Below, one piece after another: positions 10,940 through 29,665 of a stretch of 33,751 bases of DNA. The stretch comes from Ruminococcus sp. (lineage in GTDB: Bacteria > Bacillota > Clostridia > Oscillospirales > Ruminococcaceae), in contig JAJQGV010000089.1 in NCBI GenBank assembly GCA_021200215.1, forward strand, positions 1-33,751. Direction: 5' to 3'. Position 1 is the stretch's first letter. Each line of letters opens with the position of its first letter. Made by a program: the position numbers and the translations under genes. A model generated the notes under the pieces. It was not told where the DNA came from. It saw nothing but the letters and a program-made list of their open reading frames with translations, and ran no database searches.

Positions 10940-11797
10940 TTACTCTTCACTAGTAGAAGTATCATCTGAAGTATCCTCATCGTCTGAACCAAATAGCCTA
11001 TCCGACACCTTTCCATATAGGTCAGAAATAGTATCTTTAATGTTAGTAATACGGGTTTTGTAATCTAGGAATGTAAACCATTCATTTTCTATTGCATCAC
11101 TGTTGCGAAAACGTAACTCATCGTCAATGTATAGGTCATCTTCACGCCATTCAATCTCTACATCTCTTCTTTCTCTAATGTTGTAGACTATTCTTTCATA
11201 GTCCTTAGATATGAAAGCTATACCATTATAGTAGATGTCATAGGTATTAGGTTCTACATAGATTTTTGTACTACCAGTAGAACTATCGATAGTATCAATT
11301 ATGTAACATCTGTATGTACCGCTTTCGGATACGTAGTTTTCAGACTTAGTATCTCTAGTCTGACCGACTATAAGGTTACTATATAAAAAGTACGCTATAA
11401 CTGCCATTATGTATATCATAACGTACGTAGTACCTATAATAGTTTTAAGATTTTCACTAGCACCACATAGAAAGAACATCACTACAGATAGTACCGCTAT
11501 TGGTATTACTAATATCCAGTTACCCCAACAAAACATAACCACTGGAAGTATTAAAAGTAGAGAAAGCATGGAAATTATAGAGGTGATTAGATTCTTTCTA
11601 GTATAAATCATAATAGCACCTAATACCACAACTACAATCGCTATAGTAATGCCAAAGGTTTTAGTATTGGTTATAACTACATCATAAAACAGAGCCATAT
11701 ACGATAGGATTACCGTTAACCCCCCCAACGTTAGACTAAATATGGATACACACCTTTTAGTCCATTTGTTGTTAAAAAAATCTTTTAATAAAGCCAT
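10940..11797 (-). CDS. Hypothetical membrane protein (multi-TM N-terminus, soluble C-terminal domain)
   Basis: 285 aa, several hydrophobic segments, acidic Ser/Asp/Thr tail; GAAAGGAGT RBS. Confidence 0.75.
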   Translation of the reverse strand: MALLKDFFNNKWTKRCVSIFSLTLGGLTVILSYMALFYDVVITNTKTFGITIAIVVVVLGAIMIYTRKNLITSIISMLSLLLILPVVMFCWGNWILVIPIAVLSVVMFFLCGASENLKTIIGTTYVMIYIMAVIAYFLYSNLIVGQTRDTKSENYVSESGTYRCYIIDTIDSSTGSTKIYVEPNTYDIYYNGIAFISKDYERIVYNIRERRDVEIEWREDDLYIDDELRFRNSDAIENEWFTFLDYKTRITNIKDTISDLYGKVSDRLFGSDDEDTSDDTSTSEE

Positions 11798-11985: not shown

Positions 11986-12035
11986 GTTTCAACTCACGCT
12001 CGGTATATTATCGGAGTGCGACGTGCGTACATTAA
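11986..12035 (-). repeat. Dispersed repeat copy A (CRISPR-repeat-like)
   Basis: Reverse strand TTAATGTACGCACGTCGCACTCCGATAATATACCGAGCGTGAGTTGAAAC; matches copy C with 2 mismatches over ~46 nt. Confidence 0.8.
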
Positions 12036-12258: not shown

Positions 12259-14628
12259 ATGAAATTTTCAGATGGTCTTTGGCTTAATCAAAAGGGTTAT
12301 GAGGTTAAATATGTTTCTCAAGCCTATAAAACTACTACCGATAAAAACTCTGTAACCGTATTAGCTACACCTTGTACTATATACAACAGAGCTATGACCT
12401 TAGGTGGTGAAAACTTAGAGATTACTTATACATCTAAGGCAGAAAACGTTATTAAGGTATCTATAAAGCACTTTAAGGGCGTTATAGATAATGCTCCTAA
12501 GTTTGAACTTAACGAGGATTTAGGTTATACACCAACTATCAACAATACCCATGATAAGGTGGAACTAATCTCTGGTGATACTAAGGTAGTAATATCTAAA
12601 GGTCAAAGTTGGAATGTAGAGTTCTTCTACAAAGATAAAAAGTTGACTGGTGGTGGTTGGAGAGCTACATCTTATATACAAGAAAGTCAGTTCCATGCAA
12701 ATGCTAGATTAAATCTTCAAGCAGATGACCCTTTTTGGACATATCCAGCAGACCCACACACTACATACGTTAGAGAACAGCTAACTCTATCTGTTTCTGA
12801 GTGTATATATGGTTTTGGCGAGAAGTTTACTCCGTTCGTTAAGAATGGTCAAGTGGTGGAAACTTGGAACTCCGATGGTGGTACGTGTTCCGACCAAAGT
12901 TATAAGTGTATACCATTCTACATATCTTCTAGGGGATACGGTATATTTGTAAATAGTTCCGATAAGATTTCCTTTGAAGTTGCTTCCGATACCATCTCTA
13001 AGGTATCGTTTACTATCCCTGGTGAAAGTTTAGAATACTTCGTAATAGGTGGTGAAAACTTAGAAGAGGTGCTATCTAACTATACCACTTTGACGGGTAA
13101 ACCTGCATTGCCTCCTGCAAGTTCGTTTGGTTTGTGGCTATCTACATCGTTTACTACTAACTACGACGAAAAGACCGTTAATGAGTTCATAGACGGCATG
13201 GCTAAGAGAGATATTCCTCTACAGATGTTCCACTTTGATTGCTTTTGGATGAAAGAGTTTGAATGGTGTGGCTTTGAATGGGACAGGGATTGCTTCCCTA
13301 ACCCTAAAGAAATGCTCTCCCGCTTAAAGAGTAAAGGGTTAGGCATATGTGCTTGGATAAACTCTTATGTTGGACAAAGTTCTAAACTGTTCGATGAGGG
13401 CGTTGAGAATGGATACTTTATCAAAAAGTTAGATGGCAGTGTATTTCAAACCGATATGTGGCAACCCGCTATGGCTATTGTGGATTTTACTAACCCTAAG
13501 GCTTGTGAGTGGTTCAGTGGCAAGGTTAAAGAACTTTGTGCTACTGGTGTTACTGCTATAAAAACTGACTTCGGCGAAAGAATTCCTACTAAGGGAATTA
13601 AATACTATGACGGCTCTGACCCTATTAAGATGCACAACTACTACACCTACCTATACAATAAGACCGTGTTTAATGCCCTAAAAGAATATTACGGCGAGAA
13701 CAATGCTTGTCTATTTGCTAGAAGTGCTACAGTTGGCGGACAAAAATTCCCCGTTCACTGGGGCGGAGATTGTTCTGCTGAATATTCATCTATGGCAGAA
13801 ACTATTCGTGGTGGATTATCACTATGTGCATCTGGTTTCGGATTCTTTAGCCATGATATAGGCGGTTTTGAACAGACCGCTTCCCCTGATGTATACAAGC
13901 GTTGGTGTGCCTTTGGTTTAATGTCTACTCACAGCAGATTACATGGTTCTACATCGTATAGAGTGCCTTGGGCTTATGAAGAGGATACTCCAGACAATCC
14001 CGAAAATGCTTGTGCAGTCCTTAGATACTTCACTAAGTTAAAAGGTAGGTTGATGCCTTACCTATACGCTCAAGCAGTTAAAACATCTACGGTAGGCGTC
14101 CCTATGATGAGAGCTATGGTTATAGATTATGCTAACGAACCTGCTTGTCTATATTTAGATTCTCAATATATGTTAGGTGATAATCTGCTATGTGTTCCTG
14201 TAATGAATGAAGAGGGCATTGCTCAATTTTATGTGCCTAATGGAACTTGGACAGATATTTGTACTGGTGAAACGTATCAAGGCGGTAAGTACTTCGATAA
14301 AAAGTGCAACTTCCTAGAAATGCCTATATTGGCTAAACCTAACAGTATAGTAACCTTTGGTGACTTTAATATGAATGTTATCTACGATTACGTTCAAAAT
14401 GCTGAGTTTAAAATATATAACCTTGAAGATGGCTTGACCGCTACTACTAAAATCTATGATGATAAGGCTAATCTAGTTATGGAAATGGTAGCTATCAGAA
14501 ATGGCAATACTATTCAAGTTGAGTTTACTCAAACCGATAAATCTTTCAAGATTACCGCTATTTCAAAAGGCAAAGAAATCTCTGTAAATGTTGATGCTAA
14601 TTCTAACAGTGCGGTTATTAATCTATAG
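12259..14628 (+). CDS. GH31 alpha-xylosidase (YicI-like)
   Basis: 789 aa; MKFSDGLWLNQKGYEVKYVSQAYK, YGFGEKFTPFVKNGQ, FHFDCFWMKEFEWCGFEWD, AIKTDFGERIPT, HWGGDCSAEYSSMAETIRGGLSL. Confidence 0.95.
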   Translation: MKFSDGLWLNQKGYEVKYVSQAYKTTTDKNSVTVLATPCTIYNRAMTLGGENLEITYTSKAENVIKVSIKHFKGVIDNAPKFELNEDLGYTPTINNTHDKVELISGDTKVVISKGQSWNVEFFYKDKKLTGGGWRATSYIQESQFHANARLNLQADDPFWTYPADPHTTYVREQLTLSVSECIYGFGEKFTPFVKNGQVVETWNSDGGTCSDQSYKCIPFYISSRGYGIFVNSSDKISFEVASDTISKVSFTIPGESLEYFVIGGENLEEVLSNYTTLTGKPALPPASSFGLWLSTSFTTNYDEKTVNEFIDGMAKRDIPLQMFHFDCFWMKEFEWCGFEWDRDCFPNPKEMLSRLKSKGLGICAWINSYVGQSSKLFDEGVENGYFIKKLDGSVFQTDMWQPAMAIVDFTNPKACEWFSGKVKELCATGVTAIKTDFGERIPTKGIKYYDGSDPIKMHNYYTYLYNKTVFNALKEYYGENNACLFARSATVGGQKFPVHWGGDCSAEYSSMAETIRGGLSLCASGFGFFSHDIGGFEQTASPDVYKRWCAFGLMSTHSRLHGSTSYRVPWAYEEDTPDNPENACAVLRYFTKLKGRLMPYLYAQAVKTSTVGVPMMRAMVIDYANEPACLYLDSQYMLGDNLLCVPVMNEEGIAQFYVPNGTWTDICTGETYQGGKYFDKKCNFLEMPILAKPNSIVTFGDFNMNVIYDYVQNAEFKIYNLEDGLTATTKIYDDKANLVMEMVAIRNGNTIQVEFTQTDKSFKITAISKGKEISVNVDANSNSAVINL

Positions 14629-14708: not shown

Positions 14709-14732
14709 GTTTGTTTGTTTGTTTATTTATTT
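14709..14732. repeat. Tetranucleotide microsatellite (TTTG)n/(TTTA)n
   Basis: gtttgtttgtttgtttatttattt. Confidence 0.85.
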
Positions 14733-14767
14733 CAATCCACGCTCAGTATTATTGAGCGACGTGTGTG
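14729..14767 (-). repeat. Solitary type I-C CRISPR-repeat-like sequence (copy B)
   Basis: Reverse strand GTCGCTCAATAATACTGAGCGTGGATTGAAAT (32 nt, 14729-14760): CGCTCA/TGAGCG stem and GTGGATTGAAAT 3' end; no second repeat at spacer distance. Confidence 0.65.
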
Positions 14768-15783
14768 TGTTGAACCTCATTAGATATATATTCCACAGAT
14801 ATATCACTTGTATAAGATATATCTGTTAAGATTGAATAGTCTACTAACTCATTACCGCAATATCCCTCATATTTTAATACTACACCAGTGGTATTATCTA
14901 CGTACATTGTAAAGTTATCAACGTTGAACTTTTCGCCGTATTCGGTGTAGCCACCTTGAACTACTGTGCAGTATCTACCAAGATATTCATCTGTACCGAT
15001 TATGTTCCAATCGTCAAAATCTTCAAGATATCCAAATGCTAAATATTGTGGAAATAGATTCAATTCAGCAGAAAGTATATTAGTTGGATTCTCTCTGTAA
15101 ACATAGTTTTTGTAACCATCTTCATCTATGTAGCTTCTATCACCGCTTACTTTACTAGCAGTAACCTTTGAAGAAACGTAAATATCATTATAAGATATAT
15201 TATCATCAGAGTTACTAATCTTTACAGATTTTATTGCAACTGCATTACTTCTAATAGCATTAGATACACTTTCATCGAAGGAGTTAAACGAACCATAGTT
15301 TATGTAATCAAGTTGAGCATTAGACATATCCAATGACATATCATCGGTGTTGAGTGAACTTCTATCGATATTGTAAACTTTTTCTTCAAAGATACCCTTA
15401 ACTAAGTCAGAACTAAATTCTGTACATATGGAATAGTCTATGTTTCCATATGCTACAACGCAAGTTCCACTAACCATATCATAGTAATCTATGCTGTTTA
15501 GCATCATGTAGTATATATCATCTTTAGAGAGTTGAGTACTGCTGTTATCTACATCTAGGTTAGAATATGTATACTCATCATAGAAGAGTTGTTTACTCAA
15601 ATCATCTATGAATACAGAACTTGTAGTAACCTCTTCACTAGGAGTTTCTTGTGTAGTAACTTCAACGGTTGCAACTTTAGATTCTTCATTAGAGCTACCT
15701 ATAGTTTCATTCGCAGAAACCGTGATTGCACTCACGATTGCTAAACATGATAGGATTCCTACTATACTAAAACATTTTTTCAT
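14749..15783 (-). CDS. Secreted protein with RseB/LolA-like C-terminal region, function unknown
   Basis: 344 aa; signal peptide MKKCFSIVGILSCLAIVSAITVSA; C-terminal IIGTDEYLGRYCTVVQGGYTEYGEKFNVDNFTMYVDNTTGVVLKYEGY resembles sigma-E regulatory/LolA folds. Confidence 0.65.
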   Translation of the reverse strand: MKKCFSIVGILSCLAIVSAITVSANETIGSSNEESKVATVEVTTQETPSEEVTTSSVFIDDLSKQLFYDEYTYSNLDVDNSSTQLSKDDIYYMMLNSIDYYDMVSGTCVVAYGNIDYSICTEFSSDLVKGIFEEKVYNIDRSSLNTDDMSLDMSNAQLDYINYGSFNSFDESVSNAIRSNAVAIKSVKISNSDDNISYNDIYVSSKVTASKVSGDRSYIDEDGYKNYVYRENPTNILSAELNLFPQYLAFGYLEDFDDWNIIGTDEYLGRYCTVVQGGYTEYGEKFNVDNFTMYVDNTTGVVLKYEGYCGNELVDYSILTDISYTSDISVEYISNEVQHTHVAQ

Positions 15784-24479: not shown

Positions 24480-25553
24480 ATGAATAAAAAAATCGCAGTA
24501 ATTAAAGGCGATGGAATAGGCCCTGAAATAGTCACTGAGGCTATGAAAGTTCTTGACAGGATAGGCGAGAAGTTTGGTCATAATTTTGAATATACAGAAG
24601 TATTAATGGGTGGTTGTGCTATAGATGCTACAGGTTCACCACTACCACAAGAAACTATAGATACTTGTTTAGCATCTGATAGTGTTCTACTAGGTGCTGT
24701 AGGTGGCCCTAAATGGGATAATCTAGCTGGAAATCAACGCCCTGAAAAGGGATTGTTAGGAATCCGTTCAGCATTAAAGTTATTTGCTAACATTCGACCT
24801 GCAAAACTATTCCAACCTTTAGCTAGTGCGTGTCCATTAAAGGAAGAAATTACTGCTAATGGTTTGGATTTAGTTATAGTTAGAGAATTAATCGGTGGTG
24901 CATATTTCGGAGAACGCTCTACTACTACTGATGAAAACGGTGTGGAAAAAGCAGTGGATACCATGCCTTACTCCGATTTTGAAATAGAACGCATTATGAA
25001 AGTTGCTTTCGATATGGCTAGAAAAAGACGTGGCAAGGTAAACTCTGTGGATAAGGCTAACGTTTTAGATACTTCAAGGCTTTGGAGAAAGATTGCTCAT
25101 AGGTACGCTGAATTAAATCCAGATATACAGTTTGAAGATACCCTTGTTGATAACTGTGCTATGCAACTAGTTAGAAACCCTGCTCAATTTGATGTTATAG
25201 TTACTGAGAATCTATTTGGAGATATTCTATCCGATGAGGCTAGTATGATTACTGGTTCTCTTGGTATGATTCCTAGTGCTAGTTTAGGTGAAACATCATT
25301 GGGATTGTATGAACCTATTCATGGTTCTGCCCCCGATATTGCAGGACAGAATAAGGCTAACCCTATAGCTACTATACTATCCGTTGCCATGATGCTACGC
25401 TACTCTTTCGATATGCCTACAGAAGCTGATGCTATAGAAAATGCAGTAAACTCTGTTCTTGAAGATGGCTATCGTACGGGAGATATTATGAGTGATGGTA
25501 TGAAGTTTGTTACTTGCTCTGAAATGGGCAATCTAATTACTGAGAGAGTTTAA
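24480..25553 (+). CDS. leuB: 3-isopropylmalate dehydrogenase
   Basis: 357 aa; IAVIKGDGIGPEIVTEAMKVL, LLGAVGGPKWDN, VTENLFGDILSDEASMITGSLGMIPSASLG, YEPIHGSAPDIAGQNKANPIA. Confidence 0.97.
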   Translation: MNKKIAVIKGDGIGPEIVTEAMKVLDRIGEKFGHNFEYTEVLMGGCAIDATGSPLPQETIDTCLASDSVLLGAVGGPKWDNLAGNQRPEKGLLGIRSALKLFANIRPAKLFQPLASACPLKEEITANGLDLVIVRELIGGAYFGERSTTTDENGVEKAVDTMPYSDFEIERIMKVAFDMARKRRGKVNSVDKANVLDTSRLWRKIAHRYAELNPDIQFEDTLVDNCAMQLVRNPAQFDVIVTENLFGDILSDEASMITGSLGMIPSASLGETSLGLYEPIHGSAPDIAGQNKANPIATILSVAMMLRYSFDMPTEADAIENAVNSVLEDGYRTGDIMSDGMKFVTCSEMGNLITERV

Positions 25554-25599
25554 TGTACGCACGTCGCACTTCGATAGTATACCGAGCGTGAGTTAAAAA
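25550..25599 (+). repeat. Dispersed repeat copy C (CRISPR-repeat-like), starts at leuB stop
   Basis: TTAATGTACGCACGTCGCACTTCGATAGTATACCGAGCGTGAGTTAAAAA; near-identical to copy A in opposite orientation. Confidence 0.8.
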
Positions 25600-29470: not shown

Positions 29471-29473
29471 ATA

Positions 29474-29665
29474 TCTTAGATAGAGGTGCGATAGAGATAA
29501 GTATTCTATGCTAAGAACAATATCGAGTTCGTTAAGATGTTAGGTATAGAGGAAAGGCAATATCGCCGAAATGCTAAAATGTATCGATATGGTTTTAGCG
29601 TTGGGTACAGACTTAATAGGTTTGTAACTGTCATCATGGTTATGATGGAGAGCTATCGGCATATA
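29474..29665 (+). ncRNA. Lysine riboswitch (L box)
   Basis: GATAGAGGTGCGA...AAGTAT...GAGGAAAGGCAATATCGCCGAAATG...TGGGTACAGAC...AACTGTCATCATGG...GGAGAGCTATCGGC; upstream of asd-dapA-dapB. Confidence 0.93.

What the first reader, a model, noticed from the sequence alone, without database searches (positions are those of the whole stretch)
11986..12035. Near-identical dispersed ~46-nt repeat (copy A), partner at 25550-25599
Copies A (11986-12035, -) and C (25550-25599, +) share TTAATGTACGCACGTCGCACTYCGATARTATACCGAGCGTGAGTTRAAA with only two internal transitions, 13.5 kb apart in opposite orientation. Both show the GTCGC...GAGCGTGRRTTGAAA frame of copy B (14729-14767) preceded by an ACRCAC extension, so the three look like one family. 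Copies A and B lie either side of the GH31 gene in the same orientation. Possibilities: degenerate CRISPR-derived repeats, a REP/MITE-like element, or a conserved regulatory RNA/protein site.
Basis: seen in the sequence. Interest (0 to 1): 0.7.

Follow-up and report, generated by a model that had tools for sequence, protein, structure and literature searches.

The report
Jumping DNA remnants resembling CRISPR repeats
The two matching ~48-letter sequences are leftover right ends of a short, gene-less jumping element (about 180 letters, dozens of copies in this genome) that occurs in many gut Clostridia; its left end is shared with a known transposon family, while its right end oddly looks like a CRISPR repeat.

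Summary
A (11986-12033, -) and C (25552-25598, +) share 45 of 48 bases (three transitions, not two). They are not a chance pair: the genome has 52 dispersed sites with the same 3' motif and 40 BLAST matches to a noncoding ~185-bp element whose last ~48 nt are A and C. The element also occurs in Fusicatenibacter, Blautia, Hungatella and other gut Clostridia. Orthologous empty sites in Hungatella show precise insertion 3' of TTTAA with no target duplication beyond 2 nt. Its left end is homologous to that of TTTAA-flanked IS605 (TnpA/TnpB) elements in carrier genomes (best E 5e-11; shuffled controls 6e-4). Best explanation: a non-autonomous, PATE-like element of the IS200/IS605 kind; A and C are core-deleted right ends. 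Unresolved: the right end matches no IS605 end examined, but shares GTCGC plus 15 contiguous bases with the type I-C-like CRISPR repeat of the same genome. Coupling to CRISPR is not supported in Fusicatenibacter, where the element's stem differs by compensated changes from the resident array's repeat. CRISPR mimicry remains a low-probability, interesting reading.

The parts
11986..12033 (-). Copy A: right-end relic (element positions 139-186), TTAATGTACGCACGTCGCACTCCGATAATATACCGAGCGTGAGTTGAAAC, in the gap between the divergent 285-aa ORF (10940-11797, -) and the GH31-like ORF (12259-14628, +)
   Evidence: 48/48 identical to the right end of the full element
25552..25598 (+). Copy C: right-end relic (element positions 139-185)
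   Evidence: 93.6% identical to the right end of the full element; same internal start as A and as C46:17012
25549..25553 (+). TTTAA at the left edge of copy C; its TAA is the stop codon of leuB (24480-25553)
   Evidence: sequence and ORF list
14729..14760 (-). Copy B: GTCGCTCAATAATACTGAGCGTGGATTGAAAT, probably another shortened right end; intermediate between the element end and the CRISPR repeat
   Evidence: sequence; alignment to the array repeat scores above all 20,000 shuffles; assignment to the element family is inference
14770..14774 (-). TTCAA at the left of copy B, possible target sequence (TTYAA)
   Evidence: sequence; inference from TTYAA at other left edges

Best explanation
A and C are core-deleted right ends of a small non-autonomous mobile element of the IS200/IS605 kind (PATE-like). 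The full element is about 180 nt: TTTAA | left hairpin AGCAAGAATTCCCCCACTTC..AGTGG.GAGATGAATTGCT | hairpin with GGCGGAGARAAATCGGTATCC | right near-terminal palindrome GGTCAATCCACGC...GCGTGGATTGAAACAA. Shown: it encodes no protein, it is found 3' of TTTAA with orthologous sites empty in a sister species and no duplication beyond an ambiguous 2 nt, its left end is homologous to the left end of TnpA/TnpB IS605 elements that also sit 3' of TTTAA, its stems covary, and an internal deletion occurred in place at one shared site. Inferred: a Y1 transposase acting in trans moves it as single-stranded DNA, preferably from or into the lagging-strand template. Inferred: A, C and similar copies arose by deletion between the terminal TTTAA and a TTAAT-like sequence in the inner hairpin loop.
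For: Many copies with one precise right edge. Empty-site comparisons: H. hathewayi L116 against H. effluvii L158, and L099 against L170. In-place core deletion at CCCCCAC repeats, L132 against L168. Left-end homology to IS605 elements L199, L200, L217, L221 and L225, best E 5e-11 against 6e-4 for 1140 shuffled queries, and TTTAA at the left of L199, L201, L217, L221 and L225. The same clade of TnpA is present in F. saccharivorans, H. effluvii and other carriers. Structure: 90.7% paired cells against at most 50% when slid. Six of seven H. hathewayi copies point along the replication fork by GC skew. Published behaviour of IS605 and PATEs: PMC7290912, PMC3119063, PMC11043419.
Against: The right end and core were not found in any TnpA/TnpB locus examined; the IS605 elements with the matching left end finish in YGTCAC instead. 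No autonomous copy with both ends is known. The window's assembly has no detectable Y1 transposase, though it is 92.75% complete and fragmented. Left hairpins of L096, L141 and L143 differ and do not match the IS loci. Only two empty sites are clean, and at one of them the target base differs (TGTAA).
Confidence: 0.72

Rival explanations
1. The copies are ectopic type I-C CRISPR repeats, or mimics of them, acting through Cas proteins: a solitary-repeat RNA anti-CRISPR (Racr) or a CreA-like RNA. Their transcripts would be bound and cut by Cas5d and would sequester Cas subunits or guide Cascade.
For: GTCGC plus 15 contiguous 3' bases are shared with the array repeat of the same genome, above all of 20,000 shuffles. 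A full element sits about 200 nt upstream of the array. Solitary I-C repeats downstream of a gene can inhibit CRISPR (PMC10651486), and ectopic degenerate repeats can be CreA RNAs (PMC9458426).
Against: In F. saccharivorans the elements end GACTGTGAGTTGAAAC while its array repeat ends GAGCGTGGATTGAAAT. B. schinkii and H. hathewayi carry the element with no array of that repeat end. In full elements the handle-like 3' arm is complementary to an upstream arm in 83% of cells. No Cas5d was found in the window's assembly.
Confidence: 0.08
2. The element is a cis-acting or trans-acting structured RNA kept for a host function (for example operon mRNA processing), and mobility is secondary.
For: Both callable neighbours are co-directed with the element in 18 copies and opposed in 0 in this genome, 10 and 1 elsewhere; 16 of 32 copies are followed within 60 nt by a ribosome-site-like motif and start codon. 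Stems covary.
Against: Sites differ between species and include empty orthologous sites, and truncated copies are common. Neighbouring genes share no evident theme. Replication-linked insertion and selection against harmful orientations could give the same bias.
Confidence: 0.1
3. A retroelement-like (SINE-like) mode: RNA copies with a fixed 3' end are inserted at TTTAA with 5' truncation.
For: Several short copies share one right edge and have different left edges, mostly at TTTAA or TTTCAA.
Against: Most copies are full length with a precise left edge; no target duplication; the left end is homologous to an IS605 end; an in-place deletion at direct repeats was seen. Reverse transcriptases were not searched for.
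Confidence: 0.04

Closest known systems
PATEs: non-autonomous, ends-only IS200/IS605 derivatives (Haloquadratum, Halanaerobium; PMC3119063, PMC7290912)
   Same: Short, no transposase, near-terminal palindromes, no target duplication, short oligonucleotide target, core deletions at direct repeats, left end homologous to IS605 elements of the same genomes.
   Different: The right end is not that of the IS605 elements that share the left end, the middle is a conserved structured core, and the right end resembles an I-C CRISPR repeat.
IS605 elements with TnpA and TnpB flanked by TTTAA (L199, L221 here; TTTAA as TAM and predicted insertion site of Sulfolobus TnpB, PMC11043419)
   Same: Left hairpin sequence and TTTAA at the left.
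   Different: They encode TnpA and TnpB, carry an omegaRNA-like region AACCGTGGG..CACGGGG and end in YGTCAC.
Type I-C CRISPR repeat and Racr solitary repeats (PMC10651486)
   Same: GTCGC and GAGCGTGGATTGAAA; a small 3' hairpin followed by an ATTGAAA tail.
   Different: Part of a ~180-nt mobile element, stem changes independently of the resident array in F. saccharivorans, longer loop, 3' arm paired with an upstream arm.
REPIN or BOX-like intergenic repeats
   Same: Dispersed structured intergenic repeats in many copies (general knowledge; REPINs also PMC3116915, seen).
   Different: No sequence relation was tested or claimed; here the left end ties the element to IS605.

Membership tests
Non-autonomous IS200/IS605 element (PATE) | No transposase inside the element | tested here: met
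   ~185 nt between TTTAA and the right edge; no open frame of note
Non-autonomous IS200/IS605 element (PATE) | Insertion 3' of a fixed tetra- or pentanucleotide without target duplication | tested here: met
   Two orthologous empty sites; TTTAA or TTYAA at nearly all left edges; ambiguity of 2 nt
Non-autonomous IS200/IS605 element (PATE) | Left end homologous to an IS200/IS605 element with TnpA | tested here: met
   E 5e-11 (L100 against L221/L217), shuffled best 6e-4
Non-autonomous IS200/IS605 element (PATE) | Right end homologous to the same IS200/IS605 element | tested here: not met
   No core or right-end match in the Y1 and TnpB loci examined; IS right ends are YGTCAC
Non-autonomous IS200/IS605 element (PATE) | Near-terminal palindromes at both ends | tested here: met
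   Left hairpin by folding; right helix 65-74/118-127 paired in 83% of cells on 46 sequences
Non-autonomous IS200/IS605 element (PATE) | Moved by a Y1 TnpA in trans | not testable with these tools
   TnpA of the matching clade is present in several carriers, none found in the window's genome
Type I-C ectopic CRISPR repeat / Racr | Sequence similarity to a resident I-C repeat | tested here: inconclusive
   Strong in the window's genome, weak for the Fusicatenibacter form, 42 of 20,000 shuffles as high
Type I-C ectopic CRISPR repeat / Racr | Solitary repeat unit, not part of a larger conserved element | tested here: not met
   A and C are the last ~48 nt of a ~185-nt element
Type I-C ectopic CRISPR repeat / Racr | RNA bound or cut by the host Cas5d | not testable with these tools
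   No Cas5d in the window's assembly
Known Rfam RNA family | Covariance-model match | tested here: not met
   No match on the element copies; window only shows a lysine riboswitch

The most novel reading that the evidence does not exclude
A self-spreading CRISPR mimic: a non-autonomous IS605-type element whose right end doubles as a type I-C repeat mimic, so that each insertion seeds a solitary repeat RNA that binds Cas5d (a Racr), or turns the downstream flank into a crRNA-like or omegaRNA-like guide that favours retention of the element.
Probability: 0.07. Interest if true: 0.85.

Novelty: new variant of a known kind. Interest (0 to 1): 0.46.

Why it matters
The element is abundant, occurs across many gut Clostridia and sits at gene ends and between genes of operons, yet it matches no Rfam family and the papers found here do not describe it. 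It joins an IS605-type left end to a right end that those IS605 elements do not have, which raises a testable question about how flexible Y1 transposases are in end recognition. Its CRISPR-repeat-like end also warns that searches for solitary CRISPR repeats in Clostridia can pick up transposon ends.

Tried and rejected
Derivation from the genome's own TnpB element (C30): its ends differ. Derivation of the core from a CRISPR leader: only the 15-nt repeat end is shared. Orientation explained by TTTAA stop codons alone: the gene's stop lies in the target TTTAA in only about 5 of 35 copies (offsets there are shifted by one base, so -1 means coincident). Relatives in the same family, order or class: none besides the own genome in 61 genomes by BLAST and 391 by covariance model, the latter with strict filters. 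Viral contigs: no hit of the core pattern, and three right-end pattern hits without element context. Plasmids: none. A left hairpin of another IS605 type in L096, L141 and L143 was suspected by eye but BLAST to the IS loci did not support it. TnpB close to the element in the 55 fetched stretches: none adjacent. Integron attC sites and group II intron ends were considered by eye only and dropped.

Full report
Observation. B is a related sequence with a shorter loop. In the window's genome (G000, 1.89 Mb, 164 contigs, 92.75% complete) the pattern GTCGCRY..GMGYGTGRRTTRAAA occurs 14 times and its reversed control never. GAGCGTGRRTTRAAA with one mismatch occurs 81 times, control 0. Of these, 29 belong to one CRISPR array split over contigs C2 and C38, with repeat GTCGCTCCTCACACGAGGAGCGTGGATTGAAAT. 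The other 52 are dispersed.

What it is. Reading the dispersed copies with their flanks showed that most extend upstream into a common ~185-nt noncoding element; BLAST finds 40 places. A and C correspond to element positions 139-186 only. The copy at C46:17012 starts at the same internal point, and those at C79:5821, C105:7452 and C48:8236 are shorter still. All share one right edge, GTTGAAA or GATTGAAA. Their left edges vary but mostly lie at TTTAA, TTAA or TTTCAA. In C, this TTTAA holds the stop codon of leuB.

Distribution. A scan of one genome per species (84,980 species) for the core GGCGGAGADAAATCGGTAT gave 55 stretches, nearly all carrying the element, in Fusicatenibacter saccharivorans, Blautia schinkii, Hungatella, Eisenbergiella, Oliverpabstia, Diplocloster, Holdemania and uncultured Clostridia. 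The core was the search key, so its invariance in that set is by construction. Sixty relatives by BLAST, and a sample of 391 genomes of the class by covariance model, held no other carrier under the settings used; the distribution looks patchy.

Mobility. Flanks of Hungatella copies were joined to make empty sites and searched in sister species. H. effluvii has the empty site of one H. hathewayi copy: TTTAA followed directly by the right flank. At a second site the filled copy sits exactly after the stop TAA and before AGGAGAT; the sister species has TGTAA followed by AGGAGAT. No target duplication is seen beyond an ambiguous 2 nt. At a third site both species have the element, but H. effluvii lost part of it between two CCCCCAC repeats. 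A, C and C46:17012 can be explained in the same way, by loss between the terminal TTTAA and a TTAAT-like loop of the inner hairpin (one full copy, L010, has such a loop). This last step is inference.

Relation to IS605. Y1 transposase and TnpB loci were collected from carrier genomes. Several IS605 elements begin TTTAAC..AGCAAGAAGTCCCCCACTTCTAAAGTGGGGGATGAATTGCG or similar, homologous to the element's left end (best E 5e-11; 1140 shuffled left ends reach only 6e-4). Own-genome left ends match as well (L009 against L221, E 1e-7). The right ends of these IS605 elements (AACCGTGGG..CACGGGG.. then YGTCAC) differ, and the element's core and right end were not found in any of the loci. So the left half of the membership test is met and the right half is not. 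From the literature: IS200/IS605 elements insert 3' of a tetra- or pentanucleotide without target duplication and prefer the lagging-strand template (PMC7290912); PATEs are ends-only derivatives, and repeat-mediated core deletions are described for them (PMC3119063); TTTAA is a working TAM and predicted IS605 insertion site in Sulfolobus (PMC11043419).

Structure. The full element folds better than its shuffles as RNA (z -3.0). On 46 aligned 3' cores the hairpin in columns 21-53 and the long-range helix 65-74/118-127 together have 90.7% paired cells, against at most 50% when slid, and 29 cells with both sides changed against 11 in shuffles. The short 3' hairpin 96-98/118-120 covaries too. The last two share columns 118-120, so they are alternatives there. 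The structure was partly derived from this same alignment, which favours it.

Orientation. In this genome, both neighbours are co-directed with the element in 18 copies and opposed in 0; in the other genomes 10 and 1 (from longest open frames, not a gene caller). On the H. hathewayi chromosome, six of seven copies point along the replication fork as given by GC skew. This fits single-strand transposition on the lagging-strand template plus selection against harmful insertions, but selection at the RNA level is not excluded. In the window itself A and B point one way and C the other.

CRISPR resemblance. The own-genome right end and the array repeat share GTCGC and 15 contiguous 3' bases; 0 of 20,000 shuffles score as high. 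This is unlikely to be chance, and its cause is open. In F. saccharivorans, which has ORFs that I read as cas4, cas1 and cas2 next to an I-C-like array, the elements carry a different, compensated stem. Carriers such as B. schinkii and H. hathewayi show no array with that repeat end, although the pattern used would miss arrays with other I-C repeats. No Cas5d was found in the window's assembly, and no cas genes are seen in the stretches fetched beside its array. Solitary I-C repeats can act as RNA anti-CRISPRs (PMC10651486), so mimicry is kept as the novel reading at low probability.

Verdict. A and C are, in themselves, ordinary relics. The element they come from is widespread, apparently undescribed, PATE-like and IS605-related, with an unexplained CRISPR-like right end.

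Noticed in passing
window 29473-29663 (+): Lysine riboswitch (Rfam RF00168, 113.9 bits) upstream of ORFs that look like asd, dapA and dapB.
   Followed up: no
L078 (C20:2263), L079 (C84:11892), L081 (C99:11764): Three solitary near-copies of the genome's true CRISPR repeat, with its CACACGAG loop, outside the array and at or near 3' ends of genes; in C20 the repeat forms the end of an ORF (...VAPHTRSVD*).
   Followed up: partly
L076 9715-9904 and 10104-11822 (G000 C2), L077 (C38 end): I-C-like CRISPR array of at least 28 repeats, broken by a contig end, with no cas genes seen beside it on either side and a full element copy about 200 nt upstream of the first repeat.
   Followed up: partly
L096 near 7592, L141 near 1504, L143 near 6282: Copies with the same core and right end but a different left hairpin (AATCCRCGTAGCTTTAGATGCGYGG), as if the left module had been exchanged.
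   Followed up: partly
L012 1-126 (C152) and L005 upstream of 723 (C60): Remnants that resemble omegaRNA/right-end sequences of two IS605 types lie directly upstream of full element copies.
   Followed up: no
L239, L240 (MT836829, MT835706): Six unannotated 'Bacteriophage sp.' human-gut contigs carry the element; the two read resemble Fusicatenibacter copies and may be mislabelled bacterial scaffolds.
   Followed up: partly
L034 1624 region (C30:10005): A 5'-truncated element copy is preceded by a strong promoter-like sequence (TTGACT..TATAAT), unlike the other copies.
   Followed up: no
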